A DNA stretch of 64,000 nt from Ectocarpus siliculosus (Eukaryota; Sar; Phaeophyceae; Ectocarpales; Ectocarpaceae), in the NCBI GenBank assembly GCA_000310025.1, contig FN649740.1, positions 2,466,831-2,530,830 on the forward strand. Reading direction: 5' to 3'. Under the pieces are notes generated by a model. The model saw only the letters and a list, made by a program, of their open reading frames with translations. It had not been told where the DNA came from and made no database searches. Shown here one piece after another: positions 26,666-53,302 of this stretch; the stretch's first letter is position 1; each line of letters begins with the position of its first letter. Made by a program: the position numbers and the translations under genes.

Positions 26666-29600
26666 CTATCTCCCCTGGTAGTGGTGATCTTCGAAGAAGG
26701 AAGGTGCTCTTGTCATTGCGGCGGTCGTCGTCGTCGATCGAAGCTGGTCCCTGAACTCGCTTATCGACACCCCCGGAGGAACGAGGCCGAGGGCGGCCAG
26801 TCGGTGGTACTCCCGCTCCTCCTGCCTTCGCTGAATGGCCGACGCCACTCGTTCAAATCTGGCAACAGGAGCGAGCGTGAACACGGGGTACGCGTGTAGC
26901 GTGTGCGACGGTAAATCAGCACAACTTCCCTGGGATGCTTAGCCCTCACGGAACGACGCCCCACTCTGGTAACCTTCCTTTTTTAAACCCTCGCCTCTTG
27001 TATCCTCCGCGCGGAAACCAACGAAGAATGTATAGGTTGGTTTAGGGTAGGCCCCAAGGTCATAGGCCATGTACAATGTAAAAGTGTGTTAGAACCCTCA
27101 AGTTCCTAACTCCGCGTTCTGTAGGCTCGGCAATGAGCTTGTTTTGGAGGCCAACCTACTCTATTTCTACTCCGAACACTTCAATGGGGGGGGGGGGTCG
27201 TGAAAGCAGGTTCTCAGGGTGTTCAGTGTTGAAACAACGGCACAGGTGGAAAACAACGTTCCTATCGTTACGACACAAGACCGTACGTGCGCGATTTCTT
27301 ACGTTGTGTACCAGGATGGTAGAATAAGTTGACAGGCAATAGCCTTAATGAACGTTGCAAAGGCGGACAGGTAGGTAGTCTTTGCGCGTCAGTTACAATG
27401 GTCGCCGGCAACTATTCCCGAAGTTTACTCTCTATCTGCCACCGCCCACTACAAGTAGTTTCATCCAATCAATTCTGTCAGAAAGCACGATTCTTGGGCA
27501 CCAGCAACTGGAAATGCAATAACGATCATGAATGGCTACCAGAGCACAAGCCAGGCGGCGCCTTGCCCGGCGCTGCTGACATGTAGCCTTTTTCTGCCGG
27601 TTCGTCTGACCTTTGGCTGAGGGTCAATATCTCAGCGTGTTGTTCGACGACCCGCGCGTGCTCCTTGGCCGCTCTACGCCTTTCGCACGCACGGGTATCG
27701 TTCGTAGAGCTTGAGCCCGCTGCGGTTGCCGCCGCTGGTTCGGTGTTCTCTGCCGCCAACCCCCCTGTCGGAAATGTTCCCGCTGTTTTCACCAGGTTTC
27801 GTATCTTGATAGCCTGTTCCGTGCAGATACCCATCCTTTCGATCACCAGGGGCCTTTGGAGTACATCCATCCGTCAGGCCGTGAAGATGATTCGGGTGGG
27901 CGTGTTTTGTTTGTGATCTTTGCCGTTCTCGTGTGGTGTTCCGCAGCTTGGCAAACTAACGAGGGCAGCTCCGCGGTAAAATGAGCGCTTGCATGTTCTC
28001 TTCAACAACTGGAAAGAGAGTCAAGAGGGGTCACCACTTCTGAGAGCTCAAAAGCCAACCTGAAGGACAAAGATATTTTCGACAGTGTACCACTTACCAC
28101 CTCGTAAGCATGCCATCTACAGCCTCTCTGGCTCTGGCCACCCGCCCGATCTGTTGCTTGGTCTGTCTTCCGGGGTTGGTGGACTTATTCAAAACCGCCG
28201 CGTCGACGTCGTGCCCTCGTACAGCGCCCTCGATGCTCAGCTCTCGGTTAGCGTGAGCCGTCTGCGTTGTGATCAAAGCCGGGAGGGATAGTAAAACGCC
28301 ACAGAGTAAGAAACAGGTCGGCGGTGTACGTACGTGTAAGTCACGATTCACTGATAATGCTTACGCCGACAGGCTTACGTACATCGACCGCATGGTGTCG
28401 TCGCGTCGAACGACACAGGGATGCTTGCTGGAGTACATCCCCATGTTACACATGTCGGCCGACCAGCATGCCATGTATCGAATTGGATGTCATCGATCTG
28501 AAGTACTTGAGTAGGGGGTCGTCGTTGAACAAGGGCTCAACTTTCTGCTGTGCCGCCGTTGGGCATGATAATCATTTCTGTGTCAAACCTTTCTCCATGT
28601 GCACCGTGCAGCAAATTGGGAGCGCGTACTCGGGCGATTGTCTAGCAAAGTTTAAGGATAACACTGTCGGACGTCGTGCGGTTGCCGTATAACATTTAAC
28701 AAGACACGGAACTCCCCTTGGTGCGTTGAAACGGGTTCCGCCAGTGTGAAAAGAACCACATCATTATTCCCGTCATTGCATATCCTGGCGGATACGTCTA
28801 AACCCCTCTTAAATCCGAAACGTGTAGACGTAGACGTAAAGGTCGATCAAAAATCAAATCCTGTTACCTTCATCTTCGATGCATGCGCAGCGGCGCCTTT
28901 GAGCATCGCCCGAAACTCTCGGAGCCGTCCCGCCGTTGCAAACCTTCCGGTCTTCCCGGTCACCGTCGCCGCCGTCCGCCTCGAAGACCCCCCGCTGCCG
29001 TCCAGGCTACTGCTACTTGCGTCACACCGCACCTTTAGCCCAGAAACCCCCGTTGCTTCAACTGCCATGGAATGTCGCTGGCCCATGCCCGTTGTGCCGC
29101 TGACTCCAAGTTCGGTTTTGCTCTGCGTACCGGCACCGCCCACGCCATTTTCCTGACCGGCGTTCCCCGATCTTGTTGACCCGTCGGGCGACGCCGGGGA
29201 GTTTGTCGGACCCGTTCCTTTTGGAGGCTTCGTTGACGAGGGGTTGCTGGGGTTGGCGGAACTGCCGGCCGAGTAGCTGCTGCTGTCGTCGCTTCTGGAT
29301 TCTGTCTGCGCCGCTTCGTGGAATAACAGAAGGTGCATGTCAAACCCGCGAGAGACGTAGACTCCGGCGAGGATCCTGGACGTTCGGACACAGAAAGGCG
29401 GTGTTTTGATTGTTTCGTCTCTTAATCTGCTGTGTGTGTGTCTCTTTGCTTGTCAGATGGAGTTCGGTCGAGTACGAGTTTGAAGAAGCGAGAAAGATCA
29501 GAGGACTGCCTTTGGTTTGTGAACACAGGTGCGCTGGGAACATGAGCAGCCCGACACGCTTTGACTGCACGCTATACTAGTATGATACCTCTGCTGCGAA

Positions 29601-30767: not shown

Positions 30768-33700
30768 CTGTGTGTATTGGGTCGGGTCGGGCGCGGGCGG
30801 GAGTGCGTGACGAAGACCAGCCGGCGAGGGGGTCAGGGGGTAGACCGGGCGTACGCACGACAGAGGTGCCGGTCGTGAACGGGTTGCTGGACCACCACTG
30901 TTTCAAATCGTGACTGAGACACAAAGCAGAGGAATACAGGGCGCTCATTATCGAGAACACGAAATACAACAATGTGGGTGCACCCAAAAAACGGAGCAGA
31001 TTTTCTCGCATGCATTTCGAACTACTGTAGCCAACCGAAAACTCGTCCAAATACCTCTCCTTTACCGTCGAATCTGAGTTCTTAACCCATTTTTTTTGTT
31101 GCAGGAAACTCATGTGCACGTACAAGATCCTCTGCCGTTCCTTCGAGGTTACGGTATACTGAGAAGTGTACGCGCCACCATCGTGGAACGCGTGCTCTCA
31201 TGGGATCTCAATCGACAACGCAAGAGCACCAACATTCTCATCGCCGTAGCAGTCCGCAGAAAACAACAAGAACACATCCCCGGCTGTGTGAGATCTCACG
31301 TCATGAGTCGCCGCCGCCCGCGCTTGGTGTTGGTAGTGTTCACGGTGGTTTCTCCCGTGGAAGCCCATCGCCTTGTGGGAGACGACGTTGTAGTACTCCT
31401 CGAAGGTGCTCCGAACGGCGGCGGCGAACCGGCGGGGAGCGGCGAAGACATGCGCAAGGTGCATGTACTCCAGGTACGCTTGTGGATCGCCCCTTGTGTT
31501 GTTTGTTGAAAAACAGGTTTGTTGTTTTTTCCACAGAGAAACAAGAACGTGGCCCCAGGCAGTTGGGGCGGGGGGTTGTTAAGACGGTGTTGAGAATGGA
31601 GGATGCGCTGCGATCCCGTGACTATGCCGTGTTTGTCTACCAAGCACTTGTAGCGAGGGCACCTTTTGCTGCCGTTCATGGCGTACAGGAGCTCGACGTC
31701 GGCCAAGGCGGTGAAGAGTTTTTCCCTGTGAGGCCGAGACGCCCGCCGGGGAGCTTCCACCCCGCCGTGGGTCGAAAGGACGACAATAGCTGGTTTGGGG
31801 GCACGACAGCAGCGTGGTGGGGGGATACAATCAGTGCTGTTGCCATACACGGCGCTCACTTCTTCCCAGAACCAAGGCTGGGGACGTCGGGATTTCACCG
31901 CCGAGTAAGACACATGTACCAGGGGCGAAGTTCCTCGATGTAGGCGTTGGACCGGTCACATGCACGGTGGGTGGAGGTTGAATCGGACCCTTTTGACAAC
32001 TTGTGCTATGTGTGTTTACCTTTGGAATGCCTTCAACATCAGAATTTTTCTAGTCGCGTAGGAAAGACTGAGCTTTCGATTTATTGACATATTGACACAC
32101 CATGGTTGCGGCATTATAAATTTTCCCTGAAAGAAGATGATACGAACAAAGGCTCTCGAGATGTAGCTCACCCGCGAGGGCGGCGAGTTGCTCCTCCGCG
32201 CGGCGCACCCCGGGCAAATCCTTGGCGAAACTGTCTGCCAACACCTGATAGTAAAAATGTTTAGATCTGTGTTCCGTGGGTCCTGCGTCAGCACCACCAT
32301 TGGAACCAGACGACGACGACGAGGGTGCCCCTGTCACGTGCCCTAAACCCAGCGGGCCGTGAGCCGTTGCAGGTTGTGGTTGCTGATGCTGCTGTGCCCT
32401 CACCACGAACTTATCCCGGGTTTCCAGGCACTCCAAGTCCACCGCCGTCACGGTCACGAAGTCGCGGAGGACGAAACGACCGAGCACCTGCGATATGTTA
32501 GGACCGAGACGTGTTCGTGGCGTTATTGAGGAGCGGGGTACAGGGTCTCGAAGATACCCTAGCCATGCCGAACAAAAGCCGACGCTAGAGTAGCTCAACG
32601 GATGACTAACTCCACCCCACACCGGTAGAGACACACTACACGCCCAGTAGGAATGGCGGAAAACGACTTCACATACGTGGCGTTCTGCTCGTGCGCGATC
32701 TTGTGTTGGTGCACACAGCACCCCCTTTTTCGCCATCCCTCCCCCCGTCCCATTCCCCACGCGCACAAGGTTCCTACACTGCACCACTCAGCAGTGCCCA
32801 AACCGTGAGTCCATGCGCGTGTCGTATATCTTGTCTGCATGCACATCCGAGCTTCAGACGGAACACGTACCCTCTCGCTCATGAGTGGCACACCTTGTGA
32901 CAGAACTGCATCAAGTCGGGCTCGAGCGCCCTCCAGTCCTGCTGCCCGAAGGCCGGCCTCTGGGTCCGCTCAGCCCTAGGGCTGGAGCTGGTCAGGCCAT
33001 GCTCCCCCAGTGCTGCCGCCCCTTTGCCCCCCCTCTCTGGCGGTTGCTTCGCCGCTGCCGTCGGCGCCGTCGCCGCCCCGGGTTTCCCTCCTCCTCCCAC
33101 CTCCGTCGAGCTTGCGTGCGCCATCGACGCGTCTCCTACCTCTTCGGAGGTGGTAGTGTTCTTCTTCGTTGCCGTCGTCGCCGTTGTGTCGGTTGTAGTT
33201 ACAGACTTTCGCGGTGCGTCCGGAAGACCGGAGTCGTTGTTCCTGTCTTTCGTGGTATCGGCAGAGGCGCCGGGGTTCGGGGGAGTTTCAGGGCTCCCTG
33301 TGGCCTGTGGCGACGTAGAGGCGGGGGATTGCCGTGTCGTTGGGGTGGCCACCGCTGCCTCTCTCGCTGGTGGTTCTCTTGCTGATGCCGTGGTCGTTGT
33401 TTGGGAAGAGGACGGGTTGCTGTTGCTTGAGTTGCTGTTATTGCCGTTGTTGCTGGTGTTGTCGTGGACGTTGCTGCTGTTTCCTGGCCCCTTGTTGCTG
33501 CTACCAGTATTTCGCCCCCCCGTCCCCGACCCCGCGGCTGACGCCGTAACATTTGTGTACGGCGGTGGCTTGTGATGTTGATGGCGTTGACTCTTGTAGC
33601 GTTCTAAGATGTGGCGTAGCGCGGCACTCAGCTCAAGCACAGACAGGCCTGCGTGGGAAAGGCGAACCTGCGTTGCGAATCGGGAGGGAAGGAGGAAACC

Positions 33701-36700
33701 GTGCCAACAGTATGTGTCGGAAAAAAGGGGGGGAACAGGACGCAAAGCTTAGACCTGCTTCCCGACAACTTTTTGGCCGGCGAGAGGAACGAGGATCGCC
33801 GAGCGGGAGAGAGTTGCCGCGACGAGCTGGATGAGCCAGCTGCGAAAGAGAACGTACACATAAGTCTAGCCCTCAACACACAAGGACGTAGCACGGACAA
33901 CTGCCCTGACCCCGCCCGCTGAATCTCCACGTGGTTGTGAGAACAGCGATGCCGACCGACCACCGGCGATACCACGATCAGAGTGCTTAACCTACCAGGC
34001 ACAGGGCCGCGCGCAGCAAACTTCCCCGGTGACCCTTGATAGACACCAGCTGGCGGATCCGAAGCCTCGCCACACCAATCGCCGACTCCTCGTGCATCTG
34101 GGTGTGTGGGTCAAAACCGGGACGGGGCAAGGTGGAGGTGTTCGTGAATGGGTCAGGACTCCTCTAGTGGCAGAAAGGTATCAATGGATCGTGCGAACGG
34201 CGGTCTAGCAAAGTTGTATACGTCCGAAGGCCAATGCTCCAATCGAGTGGCAGCAAGGTACCAATGGGTGATGTGAACGCCGGTCTAGCAAGTTGCCAAA
34301 TGTTTTTCTCGAAGCCATGATACGACGGTTGCCGAACGTCGACAACGAGGATGCTAGTGGTGGAGGGTCATACCTGGTTGCGGTTTTCCACGGTACTGCC
34401 TAGTGCTTGCGGGTCTTTGTGCTCTTTCTGCGAGCATGACTGAAGGAGGTCGACGACCAAGTTGACTTGTGTTGTAGCAACTTTTCACTTACCTCGACAA
34501 ATGGATACATGACGCAAAAACCATCTCCTGTAGACAAGAAACAGATGTCCTACGCATAGACAAAGAAACGAAAATTTATGAAGAAGCCAGAAATATAACA
34601 CCCTCCCGTCCTCACCATCGAGGCAGCCGCCCCGCGTAGGCTGGCCACGTCTGCGTCGCTCAGGCCGCCGCCGCCGCCACCACCGCCGTCGCAATTTTCG
34701 CCCTTACCGGCGCTAGTACAAGAACCAGAATTTGAGCGGCAGGCAGCTGCCGAAGATACCGACGATGGCGAGGCGGGTCTCGAGCCGGCGCTAGCCGCTG
34801 TGTGGAGACCGGGAGGGAGCCCGGAGCGAGCCAGCTTGCCGCTGTAGCAGAGAGCTTCCGTCACTCCTACCAGAAACTGCGCATTTTCATTGTGCTTTGT
34901 CGTTGTTTGCGTTGTCGTCGAGATTGTTGGGAGCAATCGGTGCAGCCATAAAGCAACCAGGGAGTAGCCTATGAGGATAGCAGATTTTTCTCGCCCTCTC
35001 TACATACACCCTAGAGACGTGTTTCCACCTCAAGTTGTTTTTCGAGCTGACGATATTTCTAACACCATCGTTCTGGAATGACAAAACACACAGCGAAGAA
35101 GCAATTGGCGGGCTTCCTAGTGCATTCGAAAATGTGCCCTTGCCTGAATGTTGGCGGTTTTCTCCTTAAGGACGAGGTCGGACTCCACCCAGTCCAGCAT
35201 ACAGCCGACGCCGTGCTTCCTCAACACCGCATCGATCACCTGATAACCACGCCAAGATGTGTGTTGACGGCACATTGGGCCGTTTCCCGGAATGAAGAAC
35301 AACGCGCGTTCTTTACTGAAATTTTCCACCTTGTTGGTGAAAATGATGTATAATGATTTGTAGCCCGAAGATTCCTCAGCGGACTGTTCTAACAGGCACT
35401 AAATATCTTGTGGGTCTGATCGACCGTGTCAACGGCGGCTTCCTTGCAATAGCGGAAAATGAGACTTGTGCGCTGTCGACAAAGTCCAACCTCCCCAGCG
35501 AAGTACGTAAATCGCTTACTAACCATCAGGACCACCCTGTCGCCACAACTGCCATCTGTGCCGCTGCTAGAGTAGTGTATCATTCCCCCCAAAGAGTATC
35601 TGTACACGCACCTGACCCTTGGTGTCGGCATCCAGACCGGCCTTCCTTCTTAGCATGTGCCACCCCCAGCCCTCGGCCCCGCACAGAAGCTGCTGGCAAG
35701 AGCTCCCCGTTGAGCATGTCGTGATAACCTAGAATGTTTTTGTTTATGGTGTGAAGTGTTGGAGAGGGTCTATTTGGTAACCCCACATGGTTTGCGTACA
35801 ACCACGAAGAAAAAAAGGAGTAACAACCACGACACACAAATAGCTTTGCGGACTCGTCTCGGAGCGTAGAGACAAACGGGAAAAACGTGGACACCTTCAC
35901 CCGTGCTTGAGATCGTATCTTCTCTTCCTTTCGCTCGCCCCAGGAACTGAGGGGAATCGTTCTTTTGCGCCGATTCTTTCTATCTAAACACATCACACAA
36001 AGTGTGCACGGAACCCCTCCTCCTCCTCCTCCTCCTCCTCCTCCTCCTAGCCCTCCCAAAAATAAAGCTGTACAAGAGGACGTCGCGCCATTCTACCGGG
36101 AAAGGAAAACTGTCGATTGTCATTGGCGTACCTTGACATGCGGCGGCAGCTCTGGAGGGAGCCACGCCAGCGGGTTTGGCACTTGCTCTGGGGAAGCGGC
36201 GGCCCGCTCCTCGGGAGTTACGAGGGCGTCCGGGTTTTCGATGACGAGAACCTTGCTTGCACGACACGTGTACAGGTGTTGCCGAACACGTAAACACAAC
36301 TTTAGGTTCAGCCCTCAACCAGTTGGGCTATTGAGAGCTCTCTGGGGGTTTCTCCAAGTAGAGAAGGAACGCGTGGTTCGCTGTCATCTGTGACTGCGAT
36401 AGCCAAGTACCCCCCAAGCAAAGTCTCATGATCGATGGTCGAATAACGTGTCGATATAGCGATGCATAGTCCAAAGGCGGAGGCGAAGGTATGTTTCACG
36501 ACCGTCCCTCTTCGTCGGATGCTACGACCTGCGTTGAATGGCGCCATCGCCGAAGGTCTCTACTGCAATCGTCGGCTTCGAGGAAATTTCGTTCGTTGTG
36601 AGAAGTTTGATCAGCAAACATCGGACGTACGCTTCCTCTCCTCTTCCTCCTCCTTCTCCTCGTCCTAGAAACTAAACACACTACAGTATACGGAATCATT

Positions 36701-39700
36701 TCTTTGGCATATGGGACCCTACCGGGGATTTGGCGCACGACACTACTGTATCGCTGGCTCTTGCCCCGCCTCCCTCCTCACCCATCAGCCAGAAACAAAC
36801 ATCATCCTTCGACCCAAAAACGCTAGTGATACCGCGTCTCACCAAATCTCCGTGTCCACGAAGAACATCGAACCATCGCCTTAGAACCTCCGGTCCTATC
36901 TCTGTCCGCCCACCCTCCTTCCCTCCCTTCCCGCCGGACGTCGCAGCAGCCACGGCCATGGTGCCCCCACCACTCTTTGTGCCCGAAGGGGCCGCGGTAT
37001 CCGCGGCAAGCTGGTCTTGAGGGTCTACAGCAGCTTCGTCGTCGTCGTGGTTGTGCTCCCGAGGGTTGTCTGAGGTTTGTTCACTCACGATCCCTGTGTC
37101 AGGCCTATTTGTTCATTGTTGTTCGTCGGCCGTAGAAAGTCGGGGCGGTCGACTGTTGCTTGCATTTGAGCAGATGTGTGCATGTGTGTCTGTACTTCAT
37201 GATAAACCATATCCTGAACTTCACAAATCAGAACTCTTGAAAAGTATTAAATGCTGTGCACGTTCGTTGTGCGTGGTTCATAGTTGTCGCTGTCGTTGTC
37301 GCGGCTCCGGGGATGATCTTCATTTTTCCGTGCAACCTCATCTGTCTCATATTATATTCTAGCTCATTTCGCTATGAGTAGTTCCTCGTGCCTGATAATG
37401 TCATAGCTGCTATGCATAGACGCCAACTATCGATATGTCCCACTGTTGCTGCAGCTACTGTGGAACGCCGACGAGGGGGTGCAAAGGGATTATTTCCTCA
37501 CCGTGGACCTTCTTTCCTTCGTGGTGTCCACCATTTCCTAGTGCTAAGGGTTTCAGTTCCTTCCAGTGGGTGCGCTCACGAACTGCAGCTCTTTCTACCC
37601 ACAGCGCGCGACATCTCAACTCGAGCGTACCGACATTCGTTGCGTCGCCTCTTCGCCACTGATATGTACCATAGAGGTTAAAAATAAACATGTCGAGCCT
37701 GCAGTTATAGATACGATACCTGCTAGAGAGACCGGGCTTGTCCGGCATTTTGTAGGGCATGCCGAATGTCCGGATTATCTCACAGGATAGGTAGTTCACT
37801 AGGTGCGCTTTATCAAGGCGGCCATGGCAAGGGTCCCGGCAATCCACACGCACCACCTGCGGTTGTAAGCAATGGCAACGAGGTCACTCGTTGGCAACGA
37901 TATTTTCTCTGCGATCGTGACTAACAAGCAGTCACCTGGGAGCACCGGTGTAGAAAGTTGTCAAAGCTCCCGAATCGAACATCTCCCGTAGTGCATACCC
38001 CCCCTCCCCCCCCATCTCACCAGTGTTCGCCGTTCCACCGTTTCATCAGCCAGGCCTCCGTCATTCAAATTGCGCGAGACCAGCCGAGGCCTCGAAATCA
38101 CTGCTCGCGACAGGTTGCAGCGGCCGTACTGTGGGATCCTGTCTAGCGACTCGACGACCGTCACCCCCTGTAAAAACAGTTTGAAACCGGTTCGGAACTA
38201 CCAATGAAGTAAAACAAGGCGAGTCCTGAGACCGTCGCAGGTGAAAGTAAAAGCCAAGTGGGAAGGCCGAGGGATGCGGAATGGCTCTTCGGTGTGACAA
38301 GTAGATATACCTTTCACGCGGGGTTGGTGTTCGATTTTTTTGACTTAGATGTACTGCTATGGCACCGTACTACTGTCTCGTCATCCCTCATTCTCAGCCG
38401 ACCGTGTGATGCTGGTCTGCGCTTCAAGAGCGTTTAGGAAGCTAAACCGGCGTCAAGCTCATCGCCCTTGATTGGCAATGGGCACAAGAATCCCCTGTGT
38501 CGTCTCGTGAAAGCTACGTTGGACACAAATTCTCTGCCGTCCGTACCACGAGGTTTGGTCGCAGTTCTCACCTTTCGACCTCCCGCAACCTGCCCCCTGC
38601 AGTACCACTCTAAAAAGCCGAGCAAGGCGGTGGTGAGTCCAGTGCCGGGCTGATCGACTACAACCATGCCTATCGTTGTTTTGTCTCCCAGGTAATCTGC
38701 CAGCACGACGGCAAGCCTCTTCGCCGCGACTGCAGGCGTTGAGGCCGGCGCAGCACCGCTGCCGGCCGCACCATCACGGGTACCTTCGCTGCCCGTTTCC
38801 GCCGGCGTTGTGCCGAGGGACCTAGCGGTACCTCGGCGGCCGTCACTTCCCAAGCTGAGATCGACACGCACCGCTGCTGCAGTCCCCCCATCGGCTGCGG
38901 CAGCATGGGCCGCAGCGGCGGAGCTAATATCTCCACCCCCTTGCGCTTCGCCCGACATCCTCTTGACTCTCTCCTCGAACGGAATAAACTCGAGGCGCTG
39001 CTGTAACCGCCACGCCGCCGACGCCGCGGCAGCGGCGGCCGCAGCCGCCGTAGCGGCCGTAACGGCGGTGCTAGCAGCGGGGGAGACTGCGAGCCCCGGG
39101 GATGCGAGCACGCCGCCGGTCACGGCGGAGGGTTCGGGCCGGAAACCCCGGTAGCGGACGACGGGGAGCTTGACGACCGCGGCGTTGAGGAGGTTCCGAG
39201 CCGACGCGTGCGGGAAGAGGGAGACGTAGTCGAGACGATCCGGGGCCGTGTGCATCGGGTACAAGCGGTCTATCGCTCGGGAAAGGTCTTCGGTGCGGGT
39301 GGGGTGGAAGGGGGCGGCACGGGGAACAAGGATTGAGAGGATTCGATTTCGTTTCCATGAATAGTGTACTTGCTGGTTCTTGTACTTGGCTGCCCCCTTC
39401 TAGTCGCGATTCTACTCAATCGAGCTTCAAGACTGAGAACAAGTTCGTCACACGTATCGTGGGGATTATGGTCACGGTTGTTAACGTGTACAGGGCGAAC
39501 GACCCAGAATCTCAAGTAGACCGTTTCCCCCTGTTCCCCCATTACAGCTTTATCCGCCGCAAGGTAAGACCAGCTGTAGATGTCGTGGCGCATTTTAGCA
39601 GAGTTCGCTTACATTATTTTCAGAAACTATATATACCGATGTTTCGCTACTCGTCACCTTCCAACAACATCGAGACAAGAACCGTTTCGTCCTGGTATCC

Positions 39701-42700: not shown

Positions 42701-45700
42701 GAGGGTCCCTCTGTCTTTGAGCGTCCTTGAGGCAGGTTACCCTTTCGGTTTCTTCGTTTTGGCAACATGAAACGCAACTGTTGAACTTGCCGCGCTTTTT
42801 TCCCCTATTCGAAGTGACGTATCTAGCAACCAGATCGTTGAAAGAGCGTACCAGGACTGCATCGACCCCCCTGGGAGTGGTCAGGTCCTCGACGTCCAAG
42901 TCACTTCGCGCATCTATGAAACCAAAGGTGACGCCTCTTGCATCCAGCATTTGCTTGAGAGCGGGTGCAGCCGCATCCCTGAAGGCGGCGCGCTCTAGCA
43001 TCATGTCCCACCGTGTCGACAGGTAAAGAGTGAATTCGCGCCCATTCCTGTGTCGGGGAGCAGGGCTATTTGTTGTCAAGAGAGAGGTGGCGGTGCGCAT
43101 GCATGTATGTACGGGTAAGGCGTAAAGGCGAGAATGTGATGAAACTTACCATTTCTTTGATCTAATCCCCAGAGCACAAGTTTTCCAGGGAACGGGGAAC
43201 AGGGACGCTCATTTGGCTGCGTGCTCTCGAGACAACGTCGAACCCCGACATAGATTGCAACCGTCGTGCCCATTTAGTGGTGTCCCCAAATGGCTTTTGT
43301 TCACAGGGGACTCCGCGGCTTCGTGCACTGCTCGGACAGGAGGGAGAAGACGATTAGAAAGTTTCTTCCCCCGTTTGCAAGCTATTACTCTATGGTAACG
43401 CCGATATCTAGCCCCGACGATTTCGAGCCGCACACCGTTGTCTATTGTTTCATTGTGCACGAGGTTGCACCACACGTTCATTGTGGCAATGACGAAATGT
43501 TCGCGTTTACGCGTACGTGCCTCCAGGATGAACATACCCAAAAGAGGGAGTAAGAGGTATCTCGCAAAAAAGAAACCAGCCGTTTGCAAACCAAGACAAC
43601 ACCGATTGTAGTTTGGGGGGGAAAGGGTCGCGGGGTCGATCATGAGAGTGCACACATGGCCACACATCGAGCGGGAGTTGTCTTCCGAAAAACGCCCCAT
43701 CATAAGCAATGCATCAGAGGGCAGCGCAGCCCACCTGGAACAACGGGCTTCCTCGGCACCAAAGCCGCTGATGCACTCGAACATGGCCGTTGATCCCGCC
43801 ACGGCGTTGTTGGACTCGGTCAAGAAGGCGTGTACCGCGTACTTCCCGGGCAGAGGAGGGCCTTCTTCAAAGAACACCTATTCGGATCACAAAGAACATC
43901 CAGTCCAGTTCGAGAAAAGGGGTGTTTCGATCAAACTGTGTGTGCAAATGCCTGGACGTGAAAAACATCCGTGAGGCTGCAAAAATTAAGCTGCTGCACC
44001 TTCTTCTCCGCATGGCCACCGTCGGTGAGTGATGCACCCGCAACATTTTCGTATCGTAGCCCCCAGCACTGTATTTACACGTAGAACCAAACACCGTGTG
44101 TGGAACGAAAACATAACCTTCACGCTTGCCAACAGAAAAATAGAGAACGGGTCCGGAGGTGTTGGTATAAAACTATTACCAACAACATACTGGGAGCCCT
44201 GCAAGAAGAGAATAAATCAAGGGTATAGGTCGCGGTACATGCAAAAACTCGCGCTACTATGTCGCACCGTTCCAGAGCTTGATTCCAGGAAAGGTCTCCT
44301 GACAATGCAGGTGCCGGCGGTGGGTTCGTCCCCCCACGCGATCACTCCAAGCCAATCTCCGGTCGGGACGGCCGTGCTGTAGTTGAACCTGTAGGCGACC
44401 TGTGAAGCATCCAGCGGGTCCATACAAACGATGAACTATGGAAACATTCGAAGACGGGGTCCGGGAGGTAAGCGAAGATGATAAGCCCCTCTCTGTGAGC
44501 CCTGGCCCGGAATAGCAAAGCTTGACGAACGGAGCAAAAAGTTGGCCAATCAGAACTTCAAGAATAGAGGAATGGGCCTCGTTGTGTGAAAGGAGGGAAC
44601 AACCAGAAGGGTACGGGGAGGAGGAGAGTGAGGAGGAGCGCCTCCGTATAGGCTGTCACCACGAAAGACAGCAACATCTGACGGGCCGTATAGTCACTAA
44701 CTACAAAGATACAGAAGAGGGTCTACATATACGGTTATGAGTCCTAAGTAGAGATGAAAACATACCTCGAAGGGCGCGCCACACGTCAACCGCAGGAACC
44801 CTGGCGTGGGGGAGTTCGAAGTTGTAGCACCCAGCTTTAAGTTCGACGCAGTTGTCGCTGTTGTCGGCGGGGGAGAAACGCCCGCGACGATCTTGAGGTC
44901 CACACGAGCCATCTCAATCTTCGGGCCACGCAAGCAAGAGTTGGCCAAAGGAAAGCAAGATGTAAAGATGGATGCACCCGCTCAAAAACATGCACGCGAT
45001 AACTTGAGACACGAACCGTTCGTTTCAGTAGAGGACCTCGCAGCTCCAACGAGGGTTGAAAGCGCAGAAAATTGAAACCAGTCACTGCCTGCCGAGTGAT
45101 TGGTGTAGATGAGATGCGCAACGGCGAGGAGACGCATGGTATGCTTAGCAAGAGGCAGGGCGGCTCGCTACGAGAAAACATCCCCTACAGTCAAGTGTTG
45201 TTTTCGCTTTTGTGTTCTTGCACCTGAAAACGGAGGCGAAAAACCAACCAACGCCATCGTGCACTGCGTCTTCCTTGCTAACCCATACCCATGATCACGC
45301 AAACGCCTCCACTGGCCCACCCCCGTGAGAGGCCGTCGTCAAACCCACAATCCCCCCAAACGCGACCTCGCGCAATACCTTGAAGTTCTTGCTCTGGGCC
45401 ACACAACAGCCGCTCCCGCCGAGGAAATATCTCACCACGTACACCCCTTCGAGCGCGACTATGCGTTCGTCCACTTCAAACACTCCCTTTGTGAGGATGG
45501 CGAAGACAGTAGCAGTATCAGTACCGAAGAGAACATAGAGTAAGCTACAAACGAGGTTGGGCGTTTACAAGACTAGCTCGCGTCGTGCAGGTCCAGGATC
45601 ATGTTAAAAAAAAGATGTATGGTGACGAGGCAGCGTTCAACGGGAAGAGAAGAAACCATGTGTCGCGCAAACAAATGAAGATGAACGGCTCAATGAAGAC

Positions 45701-48700
45701 ATCGTTACCGTAACCCTCGTCTGCTGTTCAACGCTTCACAAGAAAGTGTTGAGCGATGATGGTCCGAGTTGAACAGTGAATCCTGCCTCCTCGGTCTTAC
45801 CGCGTTATCCGGTGGCAGTGTTCGCCAACCGATCATCTTTCCCGGAAACAAAGTCTTGCCCCTGTCCCCTTCCTTTCCCACGACTGAATTATGCCCGCTT
45901 CTGGTCGCTGTAGCTTTCGGCGACGCGCCTGTAGCAAGCTCCGTTGCCACCTGATGACTGCTAGATATTTTCTTGTTCTGCGTCCTACTGCTGGCATCTT
46001 CACCGTTGACGTTGTCTGGAGTGCGTAAGTCGGCGTGACGTCCGGGTGGGTTCGTACCACTTGCTACGCTTGCCGCCAACGTTACCGTCAGTGCTGGCCC
46101 CGATGACCCCGCCGCCGAGACTGTTTCTGCTCCTGCTGCTGCTGCCGCATCAACCGCCGATCCATCGCCGCCAACAACGCTGGCGCTGCCGTCTTTCTTG
46201 TTGTCGGCGGTAGAACCTACGTTGCTCCTTCCCGTGGTTTGCTGGCCGTCAGGAGTACTACCACGAGCAGTTGATTCGCCAGGGGCAACGTGGTATGGTA
46301 ATCGCTTATCGGGGGTGACGGGGGCGGTTTGACGTTGGCCTGCTTGCGGCGGAGGTCGTACAGCCGGCGCGATAACGGCGGGAGGAGGGGGTAGCTCATC
46401 GCCGAGAAGGAACAAGCCCACCCAATCCTTGGCGGGGTGGGGGTGGTGGAGTTTATCCCGATGGTGGTATCTGAGGGTGCATGTAGGACAGGACGATACG
46501 CAACGGAACGAAATGAGAGGGGCGAGGGCGCACGTTAACTTTACTGGTTGCGTCCTCGTCAACGAAGCGATTGGAACGTTGTGCTGCGCGTATGAGCTAT
46601 GCGACAAAGTAGTGAACTTCATTTCCAATAAATTGGGTTCGTAGTGTGGTTTCTTCACGCAGACCGCAAACCGATTCAAGGAGCACTCTAACCGAGATGT
46701 GTTTTCACTGTAATTTCGGCATCAGTTGTGTCAGAAAATAGAATAGTAGGAGTAGACTCGGATCGGAGTCCGTTCGAATTGTAAACGCGGTGCAGTTGTA
46801 CCGTTACACGTCGATGTCTTGGTCTGTTGTCATTTTCGATTTGAGAAGTTCCAAGTCGATTGTATCCAACAAGACGCATCAGCGTAGCAACTTTCTTTTG
46901 GGTGATACATAATGATAACGGTAAATGACGGAATCATATCAAGTTCTCGTGGAAGTCGGCGGACTTGCTCAACCGGTCAATACCCTATCATTTCTTGACT
47001 AGACAGGGTATGCGTAGTCTTGTTTATTAGAAATAAGCTCACGAGTATCGCACGGTGAACCGTTCTCCGAGAACGCCGCTGGCCGCAGGACCCAGAGCAA
47101 CCTCCACGTCCGCCCGGAAATCTTCCTTCTTCGGGAAAGAGCTTATCTGCCGGAAGGACTCTTGCAACACCTGATGGAGCGTGCGGGCGGGTGATTACAT
47201 GCATCACAATCTTCGGGTGGATGGTTACATGCATCACAAACTTCGTTCTTCGGGAAACCCCGCCTGAATATAATTTTCCCAGTAGCAATTTTTCATGTAA
47301 ATCCTTCATATTGTTTTTTGCTCGGCGTTCTGTGGACAAGGAACCTTGAGCACAGGAAATCTTCTAGAGAGCCCACTGCAGATTCCAAGTAGTTTCACCA
47401 GTATAGCACTTTTTCCTCCATCCTTTCCTGGCCGGTGCGAATCTACAACGATGTTTCCCAATCTTCAGTTCTGAGCAGGTTGATCTCACAACGAACGCTC
47501 AATTCACAATACAGTCGCATTTCAATATTCACTTTTTCGAATATTTTCGTGCCAAGGCAAACCATGTTTGTTGATGAAAACTTCGGACCACATTGCATAC
47601 AGCGCTCCGATGGTCTAGTTGGTTATGACGCCACCTTGACATGGTGGAGGTCGCGGGTTCGAACCCCGCTTGGAGTACGTTTTTTCTTTAGTAGTCTAGC
47701 CTCGGGGCCAGTTTATCTGAGTGTACCTCTTTAGGGTAAGTTAACCTGTGACCACGGGGATCGACCGCGTCGAGTGTTGGATCAGTACGGACAAACGAAG
47801 GTACTGGGTAGAGAGAGATCGGTACGGTTTTGAATGTGAAAACAACAACAACAACTCGCTATGAACCGCACTTTTGGTGGCACGCAAGAGCTAGACATGC
47901 TCCCTGCCGCCTTTGTAGGGATGCAAGCATCTGCCGCACGTTAACACCGCCACTCAATAAACCCTCAATGTTGGCCTGACCTGTATCGCCACGGGGTTCC
48001 GAACGTCTTGCTCTAGGCTGCCCATGCACGACCGCGCCGCGAGGAAATAGTCCTGCCGCTTGAGCGAGTCTGTCGCTCGCCTCACCGCCTCTTCGCTGTT
48101 GAAGCCCGTGTTGCTCGCGCTGAGAAGGGTAGCCGACAGGCCCTGTGGGTATATACCGTGGGTGACAGGAGAGACATCGCACCGCTGTGAACTTATCTGC
48201 GAATAACGCTACGTTTTAAAAATATCTTGCTCACGGCACACAATTTTCTGTACATGAAAGATTGTGGTATCCAGCGGTTATCAAAACTCCGTACTTGACT
48301 TGAGTCAGAAATTTTTTCATAAGGATCCATCTTCGGGCGGAAGCGCCCCAGACCTTGGGATAACTCTCAGCGCCGGAGGGATTTCTTCATGCGAAGCTCT
48401 CCTGCTTCCGAACGAGGCCTCGCCAAATTCAATACTTGCGTCGAATGATCTGCACCTATTATAGGAAAACATTACACTGTAGCAACTTCCGTGACCCGCT
48501 CTGAATGGCATGGTCTATCTATCATTCTGTCACTCACGGTGCACGAATGATAAATAGAAGGGCTGCCAACGTTAAGCATTTCCTCGGTAAGAAACAAGGC
48601 GAATAGACACAAACACACGTTCGTGCACACGCCAACCTCTGGATCGATCCTTGCAGTAGTGTGCCACACGTGCGGTGCCTCAGAACCTGCAGTCATCGCC

Positions 48701-51700
48701 GTTGCCGCGTTGGTCATCTCCCAGTCCGACACCATTCCTGGTCCCCCCCCCGACAGATAGCCCTCTTCCGCTTGCACGCCGTACGCGTTCATGTCTGTAT
48801 GTAATCCTCCGCGGGTGGCTTTCTCCTTGACGCCTTTGTCCTCCTCGAGTGCAGCGAACGTCTGGAACTCCCGTTTGCGGATGCGCTGTCGTGCCCTGCG
48901 GGGGTAGTGGGATTGAACGGCGGGTTGCGGAATATCTCAGGAGAAGCCGGTGTGGACAAATTAATCTTGGGCGTAGGTTCGTGTTTCTAATGCTGATGAT
49001 GTTGAAAAAGCGAGTACCCCGCCCTACCCTCCCGACCGTAGGCACCGAACCGAGTCCTTGTGGCGTAGCCAGGACCTCTCAAGTCGGGGCTACTTTTTTT
49101 TTAGGCGAGGAAGATATCCCGCGCTTTCGTGACAGGGAACATTGTTGTGCTACAATATATTCGCAAGCATGGATTTGGTTGAGAATCATGTCTCGGTAAC
49201 GTCTTCAGAAACTGAACGGACCGCTCTGCCGCCGCAAGCGCCCACTTCTCCTTGAACAGGTTGGCCAAGCGCAATTCAACATCCGCGGCATCCTCGCCGC
49301 CGCCACCACCGTTATTATTTTTCTTGCTTCTCTTCGAAGAAAACGCGCCCCCGCCTTCCGTTTTGAAAGTCTCGATGGCACGCTCTAGTTCGGCGATCCG
49401 AAGGTTCACGGTCCGAAGATGTGCCTGGAATTGTGCGATATGATGCGGATTACGGGTTTACGTGGTTGCCAACCAAGTAGTTATCGTCCAATGTCAAAAC
49501 CTGGTTACGTCGGAAGAAACTTGCTCTTGAACCGCAGTCCTGCCCCGCCATACGCAAACGAGCCTTGGTTGACAGCCGAGGGAGGCTTTGCACACTACTA
49601 TCATCTTGCCATCTTGTTTTCTTTGCACTCCAAACAATGTTCAAGTGAAGGGATTTTCCACTTAACAAGGTAGCGATTATCCGCATCAACGTATTCACCG
49701 AACTCTAACCCAATACCCTATTCTTTCCATGTACATCCTGCCAACCCCCCACCAAGATGAAACACCTGGTAGTCACGGTGCGCCGAACGTTTCTCCGTAT
49801 GAGACGTATCACACAAGTTTAACCCAACGAGAGGGGGCCTGAAGGAAGGCGTGTCTGCAAAACACGTGGCCAATTTTTGGATTTGCCGAGACTTCCGTCG
49901 CCCACTATTTACCCTTCCCCCGCTCGCCCAGCTGCTAAGAACGAACAGCGGTGCCGAGGACCACAAGCCTGGAAAATTAACCCCCCCCGAACCCGAGCGA
50001 CTCATACCTCGACGTTCCAGTCTCCAAAGTGTTGCGCTTACATGCGGGTCCGCGCGAAGCTCCTTGGCCTCGTCTTGTCTCCCCCCGTTCTGGGCGTCGT
50101 ACACTTGCAGCAGGAGCATCCCCGACGCTCGAGCCTTGGGGTGGTCAACTCCGAACGTCTGGTCGCGAGAGGTTGCACATGTAGAAAGTACTTACTCGGT
50201 GAGAAGTGCACTGGTCTTGCCTATAGGTGCTTGATTTCAACCGCAGAGTAGAAGCGGACGAATACCCAGATCCGCGTTCATGGATCCACAAGATCAGCGG
50301 CGTGCCCCACTCTCGGAACGTTGATAAATGTACGCCTTGCAAACAAGATGAGGGCTGGTTCCCTGGTATCTCTCCCCATAACGGCCAGGGTGCTACAATG
50401 TGTCGTGCCATGTGCGTGATGCGAATGCACCCCCGACTTGGCACAAAAGGGAGCGCAGGCGAAATCCACAGCAAGTTAACAGCCGTCAAGATCGTCTAGA
50501 ACGGCTTGTCTTAGCCTTTGGTGATATAGCGCCGAGGGGTGGAGAAGGAAGACTCGTGGTGGCGCTCACCGGGGCGATTTAGCAACTGCTGAATAATATG
50601 GGTGTCCTTCCCTTGGTCATGTCCGGAACTCACCGCCGATCGAATCGAAAACGCCTGCTGAAGAAGAACTTCGGCCGACAGGTAGTCCACCATAGAGTCG
50701 TCGAACCTTTGCAACCGCGATCGCAGGATCACATGACAGCGGATGGTGACGAAGTAGCGGATTCAACCGAGGGAATCGCACTGAACGAGTTGGTTGACGC
50801 TATAACCACCGCTAGGTGCTGTTTCGTGGCTATTCCAAGTACTGAGGCTGCATCTCGCCAAATGTTGAAAGCTTGCTCAAGTTGCATGAGAATTGTACTT
50901 TCAAATACGTTGTTGATGGTGCTTCGCCAAATAGTACCCAGAGCTCTTGCGAACACGTCTGGAGAAAGGATACCACCGGCTGGCTACTCACCGGTCCAAG
51001 AGATTGATGCCAGATTTGCTTCCCATGGCGACTACGGCCTCGGACGCGCTGCTCAGGTTTTGAGGCAGCGGGCATGAACAAAGGGAATAAAGGAGGGTGA
51101 GATGCAAGAGCATGTTTTGAGGAGGTGATAACAGGGTGGCCATGCCCGACTCTTTCAGGTGGTCCGTATGCTCATCATGTATCCGCGGAGGACTATGCTG
51201 AGTAATTGTCAAGGTGTTCTTTTCGATAGTTTCGGCAAGAGGGCCGTCGTACCGATACGCCGCCTCTGTTCACCAACGAAGTACCGTAGGGAAGCCATCA
51301 CGCGAAAAGAGGACACATGATTGCATTCTTGTATCGAAACTACCGTGATGTGCCCCGAGATGGTGATGAGTGGAGGACAAGGAAACAAGCCAGCAAGACA
51401 CACACGATTTATCAAACTGAACGTGACTTTACTGCGTTCTTTCTGGTAGTCTGCACGGCAGAACGCGACGATCAGGCCGACTTGGAAGGCCGCCTGGCGG
51501 GAGTTCCTTGTACCGCAAGTCGTTGCTGACTCTATGTCAATATTGAAGCAAAACCGTTGTACCCTTTCCCGGCTTGTGTTCTTACCGCTCTGTTTTGTTT
51601 AACACCAACTTGGACACGAAGAACTCCCACCCTGACCCAGTGGGAGAGCTCCCTTTCTTCAAGCCACTACCAGCACGGTATACCGGAGGCGGTGCGTTGG

Positions 51701-53302
51701 TGAGGACCTTCTTGCCTATACAAACGCAGCAGATACTGTTAGTTTGGCATCGTACCAGCCGCGCTGTAGTGTACATTTTTGCTCTTGGCATCAGCACACG
51801 CGACAACAAGTTTCTGCGGCCATGTGAGATTGAGGAATGACCTGGATAGTCCGATCTCACTTTTAAAAGTACCGTTTGCGTTGACGAAGTCCAATGCACA
51901 ACACGGCGGACGATTGGCACCCTCCCCTGTAGTATCCTGGATACCAACTCCGCCGAACAAGACGGGTGTGGCAGATTTTTTTTGCTGAACTTTGCGACGC
52001 CTAGTCCTCCTCTTCCACTGTTCGAAAGAATTTGTGGCTGAAGTCTCACCATCAAGGGAGGACGAGTATCTGGGAAGGCCGGAAGACGCCTGCGTAGACC
52101 TCCCGCCGCCACCGCCACCCCGGAGAAAGGGGCCATCCCTATCTTCTTGGGTCAGTTGGCGCTGATTGTGTGTACGCAGAATGTATGGCCCATCGTTGAG
52201 AAAGCGAGGTAAATTCAGCGGTTCAGTGTAGTCGCGCTGGACTGCGATGATGGTGAGTCGGGCCGGGAGGGCACAACATCAGCTAGGTACATAGCAGGAT
52301 GTCCAGAAGCCGCTACTACGCTCCCAGAGACGTTCGTCTTGAAAGGAGACTCGTGTATGGGGGTAGCATGGACTGCCGGCCAAATCAGTGTTCACAAATT
52401 TGCAAGTTGTTAGCGTACACAACGTGGAGGGCATGACATTCTCCAACCTGCCAAGGAAACCGACGACACCCAGTGTCGCTTGGTGGACGACATTGTTGGG
52501 AAACTTGTCTCAAGTCCTCTCTACAACCACACCGACGTATTCGTCGGCAGGCTCGCGTTAAGCTTGCCTCTCACCATCCTTCCGTCCGGTCGGCGCCGCT
52601 GCCTCGCGCTGGCTGCCCTGGTTTGCTGGTTGTTGGCGCTCTTGGCATACCAGGGCATGTCGTCCCCAAACATGACGGACGGTGACGCCCCCAACTGCGC
52701 GGTCGGCGGCATCGACAGTATTGCGAGCGGCAGACACTCGTCAGCTCTCCTCTGAAAAGCATGCTTCGTATGCAATTGCTTTGTGCACACCTTACAAAGA
52801 GGCGAGGTGCGGAAGGGAACTGTCTCCGGTGGTCACATGCCCTGCCTCTCGGCCACAGTTCGTTGCCGCTCTGAGGTGGGTAACAAGCCCAGAACGACAC
52901 AAAATTTCATGCAACTTTCTTCCACCCAGTCGACGACGTGGGTCACACGCCCGATCGAGGTCAAATACCAAATGCCCTCCCTCACCTCCTTCTTGATCCA
53001 CAGCGCGGCCTCCTCTCTCCTTTTCTCTAGCGTAGAAGGGTCTGCGCTAGCGAGCTGTCGGAGCTCCATCTCTCGAAGCAGCCACCCCGGGAACATGGCA
53101 TGGTTGCCCTCCTTACACTGCGAGTGCGGGGAAAACGGACTCGTTCCACCGCCGACCCCGCCACAACCATTAAGTTTTGAACCAAAGGAGCCGTACTTTT
53201 TTCTAGTCGACCATTCTGGAAGCGCAGCACGGCGGTTGTTGTCTGGAAGATTCCTCCGCTGGTGGACACTGAACTCCTTGAGCTCGCGCGTCCTGTCGTC
53301 GG
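26666..53302 (-). CDS. Giant TPR / SKICH / DUF4062 / STAND protein (about 3,000 aa)
   Basis: Exons in transcript order: 52986-53302, 52575-52751, 51861-52236, 51433-51525, about 50993-51048, 50634-50706, 50042-50158, 49201-49424, 48637-48895, 47981-48142, 47043-47170, 45709-46470, 45379-45544, 44766-44918, 44304-44399, 43735-43877, 42819-43047, 41838-41954, 41472-41634, 40643-40792, 40040-40164, 39658-39805, 38572-39389, 38021-38167, 37720-37856, 36843-37104, 36132-36251, 35612-35692, 35144-35239, 34616-34876, 33996-34097, 32894-33667, 32172-32487, 31663-31753, 31300-31492, 30493-30767, 29995-30075, 28868-29294, 28098-28261, 27611-27853, 26666-26858. Phases agree at every join except around the fifth exon (51.0-51.4 kb), which is unresolved. 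One intron uses a GC donor. The N-terminus lies upstream of 53302 and was not found. The role is unknown; STAND proteins are signalling switches or scaffolds. Two adjacent genes joined near 51 kb cannot be excluded. Confidence 0.8.
30453..30491 (+). repeat. SINE fragment abutting a splice donor
   Basis: Fourteen bases (gtgttttcagccgc) are identical to the SINE head seen at 5.1 kb, and 'ttttcattcgtca' differs from it at one base. The fragment ends at the GTGACG donor of the exon at 30493-30767. Similarity could be chance over so short a stretch, but the order of blocks is the same as in the SINE. Confidence 0.45.
31300..34876 (-). other. Winged-helix region split by a 180-residue low-complexity insert
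   Basis: The exon at 32894-33667 begins LSHAGLSVLELSAALRHILE and ends DWRALEPDLMQFCHK, the two ends of a STAND winged helix. They are separated by about 180 residues of Asn/Ser/Thr/Pro repeats. The following exon holds VLGRFVLRDFVTVTAVDLEC and FYYQVLADSFAKDLPGVRRA, matching the 'H..LADYF' segment that precedes the helical repeats of NPHP3-like proteins. Exons at 31300-31753 are helical (FTALADVELLYAMNGSK, FAAAVRSTFEEYYNVVSHKA). Confidence 0.6.
34166..34296. repeat. 80-bp period direct repeat in an intron
   Basis: Two copies of a block of about 51 bp begin 'agtggcagaaaggtatcaat' (34166) and 'agtggcagcaaggtaccaat' (34246) and both end 'cggtctagca' followed by 'aagttg' or 'agttg'. They lie in an intron of the large STAND gene. 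Confidence 0.75.
35144..39389 (-). other. Degenerate STAND (NACHT-like) ATPase core
   Basis: The P-loop position at 38629-38670 reads VVDQPGTGLTTALLGFL. The expected GxxGxGK[ST] lysine is absent (GTGLTT). The Walker B strand at 36251-36222 reads VLVIENPDAL, with Glu-Asn where Asp-Gly or Asp-Asp is usual. It is followed by NPLAWLPPELPPHVK, a hallmark of NPHP3/TEP1-type NACHT modules. Long Ala-rich and Asp/Gly-rich insertions separate the motifs. A Lys-less P-loop normally weakens nucleotide binding, so a non-hydrolysing scaffold is inferred rather than shown. Confidence 0.7.
39658..43047 (-). other. DUF4062 domain
   Basis: The exon at 42819-43047 carries EFTLYLSTRWDMMLERAAFR followed by a predicted strand, VTFGFIDARSDLDVE. 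This matches the DUF4062 opening 'FISSTFRDM..ER..L' seen ahead of NACHT domains in NPHP3- and TEP1-type proteins. The next exons continue the family order: RCCPYFVCCLGE then GNPWLK (41838-41954), TVTDLEVLSGFLLP (41472-41634), TEHAFFYTR (40040-40164) and a Lys-rich helix (39658-39805). Function of DUF4062 is not established; it is thought to be a sensor or effector module beside STAND ATPases. Confidence 0.75.
47191..47245. repeat. Short tandem duplication, 30-bp period
   Basis: 'gattacatgcatcacaatct' and 'ggttacatgcatcacaaact' repeat with a 30-bp period just inside an intron of the large gene, next to the acceptor of exon 47043-47170. Confidence 0.7.
47604..47677 (+). tRNA. tRNA-Val (anticodon GAC)
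   Basis: A full 74-nt cloverleaf: acceptor GCTCCGA / TTGGAGT (two G-U pairs), D-stem GTC/GAC, anticodon stem CCACC/GGTGG with loop TTGACAT, variable AGGTC, T-stem GCGGG/CCCGC with loop TTCGAAC, discriminator A. The anticodon GAC is at 47638-47640. The internal boxes are TGGTCTAGTTGG (A) and GGTTCGAAC (B). A run of six T at 47680-47685 is the RNA polymerase III terminator. No intron. It lies antisense inside an intron of the large STAND gene (47171-47980). Eukaryotic valine boxes are usually read by AAC (inosine), so G34 is less common. Confidence 0.93.
47680..47685 (+). terminator. Pol III terminator of tRNA-Val
   Basis: Six consecutive T residues start two bases after the tRNA discriminator base, a standard RNA polymerase III stop. 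Confidence 0.85.
50042..53302 (-). other. N-terminal region with kinesin-light-chain-type TPR
   Basis: The first three exons found are charged or low complexity (RTRELKEFSVHQRRNLPDNN, PLNLPRFLNDGPYILRTHNQ). The TPR is clear at 50042-50706: YLSAEVLLQQAFSIRSA joins in phase to TFGVDHPKARASGM and GGRQDEAKELRADPH, matching the KLC repeat pattern of an 'AE.LL..AL.I' helix followed by 'FG.DHP'. Such TPRs bind peptides or partner proteins. Only about one and a half repeats are visible, so neighbouring repeats may be diverged or in missed exons. Confidence 0.7.

What the first reader, a model, noticed from the sequence alone, without database searches (positions are those of the whole stretch)
26666..53302. 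A giant TPR-SKICH-SKICH-DUF4062-STAND gene with at least 41 exons
Reading 41 exons on the minus strand gives one protein joining KLC-type TPR, two SKICH folds, DUF4062 and a STAND core with winged helix. DUF4062-NACHT combinations are known (NPHP3, TEP1 types), but I know of none with tandem SKICH domains in front. SKICH domains target proteins to membranes or autophagy partners, so this could be a membrane-tethered STAND sensor specific to this lineage. Phases agree at every join but one.
Basis: partly seen in the sequence, partly recalled or inferred. Interest (0 to 1): 0.82.

Follow-up and report, generated by a model that had tools for sequence, protein, structure and literature searches.

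The report
Giant TPR–SKICH-like–TIR-like STAND protein gene
A very large, many-exon gene, probably from a brown alga, appears to encode a scaffold-like protein that joins a kinesin-light-chain-type repeat region, two SKICH-like modules and a TIR-like enzyme fold with its catalytic glutamate kept, followed by an ATPase-like domain that has lost its key ATP-binding lysine; I know of no described protein with this combination.

Summary
An 18-exon minus-strand chain (50158 to 38572) reads 1169 codons with no stop; every intron is GT-AG and all phases agree. It joins KLC-type TPR (PDB E=1e-9), two SKICH-like domains paralogous to each other (BLASTP E=8e-7; SKICH profile P=1.4e-5), DUF4062 (43 bits, E=2.7e-15 for one comparison) and a P-loop-like segment. 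A spliced-profile search without hand-picked exons recovers the same three DUF4062 exons, 70 bits against at most 45 in controls. The STAND part is weaker and the winged helix is not supported. "At least 41 exons" and one transcript cannot be proved from DNA alone. New here: a 2026 preprint shows DUF4062 is a TIR-like NADase fold. This protein keeps the catalytic-Glu column (TEP1 E1008; 75 of 75 sequences), but loses an active-site Arg, and its P-loop has Leu for the Walker-A Lys. Best reading: a recruited scaffold of the TEP1/NPHP3/NWD class with a degenerate NTPase; NADase activity is open. A new variant of a known kind.

The parts
52986..53096 (-). possible first coding exon (MFPGWLLREMELRQLASADPSTLEKRREEAALWIKKE)
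   Evidence: open frame and good donor only; start codon unproved
50634..50706 (-). KLC-type TPR, helix part (FDDSMVDYLSAEVLLQQAFSIRSA); acceptor uncertain
   Evidence: Pfam TPR_10/TPR_12, phmmer to KLC TPR structures
50042..50158 (-). KLC-type TPR exon (TFGVDHPKARASGMLLLQVYDAQNGGRQDEAKEL)
   Evidence: E=1e-9
49222..49424 (-). probable coiled-coil exon
   Evidence: open frame, phase-consistent chain
48619..48895 (-). linker exon
47981..48142 (-). linker exon before SKICH-like 1
47043..47128 (-). SKICH-like 1, first strands (KEDFRADVEVALGPAASGVLGERFTVRY)
45801..46470 (-). SKICH-like 1 core (HPAKDWVGLFLLGDE; Asp codon 46427-46425) with a long low-complexity insert
   Evidence: Pfam SKICH E=0.22 as only hit
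45379..45486 (-). SKICH-like 1, last strands (GVFEVDERIVALEGVYVVRYFLGGSGCCVAQSKNFK)
   Evidence: BLASTP to SKICH-like 2, E=8e-7
45017..45167 (-). linker exon between the SKICH-like domains
   Evidence: phase-consistent chain
44766..44857 (-). SKICH-like 2, first strands
   Evidence: weak acceptor
44268..44399 (-). SKICH-like 2 core (VAYRFNYSTAVPTGDWLGVIAWGDE)
44180..44198 (-). 19-base micro-exon needed for phase (GSQYVV)
43735..43864 (-). SKICH-like 2, last strands (GPPLPGKYAVHAFLTESNNAVAGSTAMFECIS)
42852..43047 (-). DUF4062 (TIR-like), first exon (FTLYLSTRWDMMLER...TFGFIDARSDL...TPRGVDAVL)
41838..41954 (-). DUF4062, second exon (DGIRRCCPYFVCCLGE...)
41472..41634 (-). DUF4062, third exon with the catalytic-Glu column (VTDLEV; Glu codon 41520-41518)
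   Evidence: aligned to TEP1 E1008; E in 75 of 75 sequences
40040..40164 (-). DUF4062, FFYFRD-like exon (EHAFFYTRAACL)
   Evidence: acceptor weak
39658..39700 (-). short exon GYQDETVLVSMLLE
   Evidence: spliced-profile path
38572..39287 (-). linker EDLSRAIDRLYP... and degenerate P-loop VVVDQPGTGLTTALL (Lys position is Leu, 38637-38635)
36843..37069 (-). probable NACHT exon (EIGPEVLRRWFDVLRGHGDL)
   Evidence: phase 0 donor matches the next exon
36132..36251 (-). Walker-B-like VLVIENPDAL and WLPPELPPHVK motif
   Evidence: scores above all reported shuffles of 1000
32894..33648 (-). post-NACHT exon with a long Ser/Thr/Asn-rich insert
   Evidence: long open frame; winged helix not supported
32172..32487 (-). 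post-NACHT exon (HFYYQVLADSFAKDLPGVRRAEEQLAALA)
   Evidence: open frame; family match not significant
26666..26858 (-). probable last exon with stop codon

Best explanation
One gene encodes a large cytosolic scaffold of the TEP1/NPHP3/NWD class. Shown: the modules and their order in one open spliced frame from the TPR to the P-loop; loss of the Walker-A lysine; retention of the catalytic-Glu column in the TIR-like domain. Inferred: the KLC-type TPR and the two SKICH-like modules recruit the protein to partners or membranes, the TIR-like plus NACHT-like core clusters by recruitment rather than by ATP cycling, and the TIR-like domain acts mainly structurally or as a weak NADase that needs clustering.
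For: 18-exon phase-consistent frame with GC3 above intron GC. TPR. SKICH-like pair. DUF4062: the single tblastn hit at E<=10 in 7.3 Gb of plasmids is a gene annotated DUF4062, at E=2. Degenerate P-loop and Walker-B-like segment in the right order. Glu column kept in 75 of 75 sequences, while the R976 column (R in 74 of 75) is Leu here. In PMC13174449 only TEP1 of four human DUF4062-NACHT proteins was an active NADase, and TEP1 activity rose with concentration.
Against: No transcript. The TPR-SKICH join crosses an interval holding an opposite-strand tRNA gene, and the DUF4062 exon has an in-frame ATG just upstream, so two or three genes are possible. NACHT evidence alone does not beat controls in the spliced search. 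SKICH stays below Pfam's curated cut-off. No relative with the same order was available to compare.
Confidence: 0.5

Rival explanations
1. Two or three neighbouring genes: a KLC-TPR/coiled-coil gene (about 53-48 kb), a SKICH-like gene (47-43.7 kb) and a DUF4062-STAND gene (43.1-26.7 kb).
For: A 63-bit tRNA gene lies on the + strand at 47604-47677 between the TPR-side and SKICH-side exons; an ATG lies in frame upstream of the DUF4062 exon.
Against: Phases agree across all these joins with no stop; the first SKICH-like exon has no in-frame ATG in its open segment 47194-47042; tRNA genes can sit in introns on the other strand (general knowledge).
Confidence: 0.25
2. The protein is an active, membrane- or partner-tethered TIR-like NADase whose clustering by SKICH/TPR partners, not ATP, switches it on to deplete NAD+ in stress or infection.
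For: Catalytic Glu column kept, Arg aligned with TEP1 R954 kept; DUF4062 NADase activity depends on clustering in TEP1 and Swarozyc.
Against: The near-invariant Arg (TEP1 R976; its Ala mutant reduces activity per PMC13174449), the TEP1 R908 position and the DLRWG and GxRYGW motifs are all lost; human NPHP3, NWD1 and NWD2 are inactive.
Confidence: 0.15
3. A decaying pseudogene or chance join of exon-like stretches.
For: Many active-site and nucleotide-binding motifs are lost; some splice sites are weak (acceptors at 40164, 39287 and 36251).
Against: 1169 codons without stop across 18 exons and elevated GC3; collinear domain signal far above controls.
Confidence: 0.1

Closest known systems
TEP1 / NPHP3 / NWD1 / NWD2 (DUF4062-NACHT proteins)
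   Same: DUF4062 followed by a P-loop NACHT-type segment; catalytic-Glu column kept as in TEP1
   Different: KLC-type TPR and two SKICH-like domains lie in front of DUF4062; Walker-A Lys is Leu; several DUF4062 active-site motifs lost; no WD40 found
Prokaryotic DUF4062-NACHT proteins (e.g. Chloroflexota CP069395 plasmid protein, L001)
   Same: same order of DUF4062 and NACHT; used here as the profile
   Different: no introns, WD40 repeats in L001, intact P-loop (GGMGKS) and Walker B
SKICH proteins (NDP52/CALCOCO2, TAX1BP1, CALCOCO1, INPP5K)
   Same: DW[VIL]G core and C-terminal G-Y...S-F strand pattern aligned over 82 columns
   Different: two tandem copies, one with a long insert; no coiled-coil/LIR or phosphatase context seen; below Pfam cut-off
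Brown-algal NB-ARC-TPR and LRR-ROCO candidate immune receptors (PMC11378527)
   Same: large multi-exon proteins joining a nucleotide-binding domain with repeats in brown algae
   Different: no NB-ARC, ROC or LRR found here; TPR is N-terminal; no array of equal shuffling exons seen
Swarozyc (bacterial DUF4062 defence, PMC13174449)
   Same: same TIR-like fold family
   Different: short bacterial effector with HTH/winged auxiliary domain; no similar auxiliary domain here

Membership tests
DUF4062 (TIR-like) | profile similarity over the domain | tested here: met
   43.0 bits, E=2.7e-15 for a single comparison with a profile of prokaryotic members plus TEP1; spliced search 70 bits against <=45 in controls. 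Pfam PF13271 itself gave no hit
DUF4062 (TIR-like) | catalytic glutamate | tested here: met
   E in VTDLEV aligns with TEP1 E1008; 75/75
DUF4062 (TIR-like) | conserved active-site Arg (TEP1 R976 column) | tested here: not met
   R in 74/75, Leu here
DUF4062 (TIR-like) | NADase activity | not testable with these tools
   needs purified protein
STAND/NACHT NTPase | Walker A GxxxxGK[ST] | tested here: not met
   DQPGTGLTT, Lys position is Leu
STAND/NACHT NTPase | Walker B hhhhD | tested here: inconclusive
   VLVIENPDAL, Glu at the Asp position; exon acceptor weak
STAND/NACHT NTPase | winged helix after the NTPase | tested here: inconclusive
   not above shuffles
SKICH | profile match above curated cut-off | tested here: not met
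   12.5 bits against 23.4
SKICH | full-length fold-level similarity | tested here: inconclusive
KLC-type TPR | TPR with FGxDHP-type turn | tested here: met
   E=1e-9 to 4y6w, 3.6e-7 to KLC1
Brown-algal NB-ARC-TPR | NB-ARC followed by shuffling TPR exons | tested here: not met
   no NB-ARC in Pfam scans of the model and its pieces

The most novel reading that the evidence does not exclude
A eukaryotic TIR-like NADase fused behind tandem SKICH-like modules and a dead NTPase, switched on by membrane or autophagy-cargo clustering instead of ATP, acting in algal stress or immune signalling.
Probability: 0.12. Interest if true: 0.8.

Novelty: new variant of a known kind. Interest (0 to 1): 0.5.

Why it matters
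DUF4062 was only recently shown to be a TIR-like NADase that serves bacterial immunity and the vault. A distant eukaryote that keeps its catalytic glutamate but has lost the neighbouring ATP switch, and has gained two SKICH-like modules, would show how this fold is re-wired, and gives a direct test of whether NADase activity can be uncoupled from NACHT ATP binding.

Tried and rejected
Pfam/NCBIfam on the automatic model and on pieces: no DUF4062, NACHT or winged-helix hit. PDB search with the DUF4062-NACHT piece: nothing. Six-frame single-exon HMM search: individual exons too short to stand out. First settings of the spliced-profile search were discarded because splice-site scores were added without cost. 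My first choice of FFYFRD exon (41053, QNRFLFRDDARFF) was replaced by 40164-40040, chosen by the spliced search. GVTVVESLDRIPQ at 38167 as Walker B was rejected in favour of 36251 (no score). IMG/VR scans with DUF4062 and brown-algal pieces, and a phage tblastn: no relatives. The first genome-contig scan failed, the second gave 79 loci. Literature: no paper joins SKICH with DUF4062, or SKICH with Ectocarpus; the three papers holding both 'SKICH' and 'NACHT' are about unrelated subjects.

Full report
Setting. The minus strand from about 54 to 26 kb is intron-rich. A simple self-trained exon decoder joined it into one gene of 30-47 exons depending on iteration, but that decoder is unvalidated and favours joining, so I did not rely on it for exon counts or gene ends.

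Gene model. I listed open segments with candidate splice sites and assembled the core by hand. The resulting chain of 18 exons from 50158 to 38572 reads 1169 codons without a stop, with every intron GT-AG and every phase consistent; GC at third codon positions is 0.663 and intron GC 0.503. A 19-base micro-exon (44198-44180) and a linker exon (45167-45017) are needed for phase; a first attempt without them broke the frame. Acceptors at 40164, 39287 and 44857 are weak. Downstream of 38572 only parts are firm: a pair of phase-compatible exons 37069-36843 and 36251-36132, two long open exons (33648-32894, 32487-32172), and a last exon 26858-26666 that fits the exon ending at 27611.

TPR. The piece from 50706-50634 plus 50158-50042 matches kinesin-light-chain TPR structures (4y6w E=1e-9, KLC1 E=3.6e-7) and Pfam TPR_10, TPR_12 and, weakly, TPR_NPHP3.

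SKICH-like domains. The two DWxG-containing domains are 30% identical over 87 aa (BLASTP E=8e-7 for this comparison). As a pair they align with four SKICH domains over 82 columns (hhalign Prob 80%, P=1.4e-5); 200 column shuffles reach at most 18.6 against 33.4. The long insert of domain 1 was left out for these tests. NDP52 was checked against PDB chains and TAX1BP1 was taken from the alignment PDB returned; the CALCOCO1 and INPP5K sequences were written from memory and checked only as SKICH by Pfam. Pfam SKICH is the only hit of domain 1, at E=0.22; domain 2 has none. I call them SKICH-like.

DUF4062. A tblastn of the spliced piece against 7.3 Gb of plasmids returned a single hit at E<=10, a Chloroflexota DUF4062-NACHT-WD40 gene, at E=2. 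With that protein and a Rhodococcus relative I fetched 79 prokaryotic loci. A profile of these plus human TEP1 (PDB 11gz) scores the spliced piece at 43.0 bits, E=2.7e-15 for a single comparison; exon choice by eye makes that number optimistic. An independent dynamic-programming search of the DNA with introns allowed recovers the same three exons (43047-42852, 41954-41838, 41634-41472) with 70 bits, against 22-36 bits elsewhere in the window and at most 45 with permuted profile columns.

Catalytic residues. A 2026 preprint (PMC13174449) shows DUF4062 is a TIR-like NADase; TEP1 E1008 is catalytic and R908, R954 and R976 lie in the active site. Placing these by offset on the 11gz sequence, the E1008 column is Glu in 75 of 75 sequences including this one; R954 aligns with an Arg; R976 (Arg in 74 of 75) is Leu; R908 aligns with Trp. 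The DLRWG and GxRYGW motifs are lost. The preprint found human NPHP3, NWD1 and NWD2 inactive, so a kept Glu does not prove activity.

STAND part. The P-loop segment (VVVDQPGTGLTTALL) and the Walker-B/WLPPELPPHVK segment follow in the family's order and each scores above every reported shuffle of 1000, but the NACHT profile alone does not beat controls in the spliced search. The Walker-A Lys is Leu and the Walker-B Asp position is Glu. The winged helix is not supported by sequence.

One gene or several. The frames join cleanly, and the first SKICH-like exon has no in-frame ATG in its open segment, which favours one gene. Against it, a tRNA gene (Val, GAC anticodon by ARAGORN; 63.4 bits in Rfam) lies on the plus strand at 47604-47677 in the intron before it, and an in-frame ATG precedes the DUF4062 exon. 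Only transcripts can settle this.

Function. The most economical reading is a recruited scaffold of the TEP1/NPHP3/NWD class in which ATP switching has been lost and TPR and SKICH-like modules provide the contacts. Whether the TIR-like domain still hydrolyses NAD+ is open, and testable.

Noticed in passing
window 47604-47677 (+): A tRNA gene (Rfam 63.4 bits; ARAGORN Val, anticodon GAC) lies antisense inside the presumed intron between the TPR-side and SKICH-side exons; its reverse reading gives the peptide AGFEPATSTMSRWRHNQLDHRS.
   Followed up: partly
window about 13767-13911 (+): Strong ankyrin-repeat match (Pfam Ank E=4.5e-11), presumably another gene.
   Followed up: no
window 26858-26666 (-) and upstream C-terminal exons: The joined C-terminal piece gave a weak, below-cut-off Pfam SseC match (E=0.0028), probably a coiled-coil effect.
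   Followed up: no
window 46470-45801, 39287-38572, 33648-32894 (-): Long low-complexity inserts (Ala/Gly/Ser/Thr/Asn-rich) sit inside or beside the folded domains of the protein.
   Followed up: no
L001 (CP069395.1): A cold-seep Chloroflexota plasmid carries an intact DUF4062-NACHT-WD40 gene, the TEP1/NWD-like layout in a bacterium.
   Followed up: partly
window 12435-12534: A run of 100 N marks an assembly gap.
   Followed up: no
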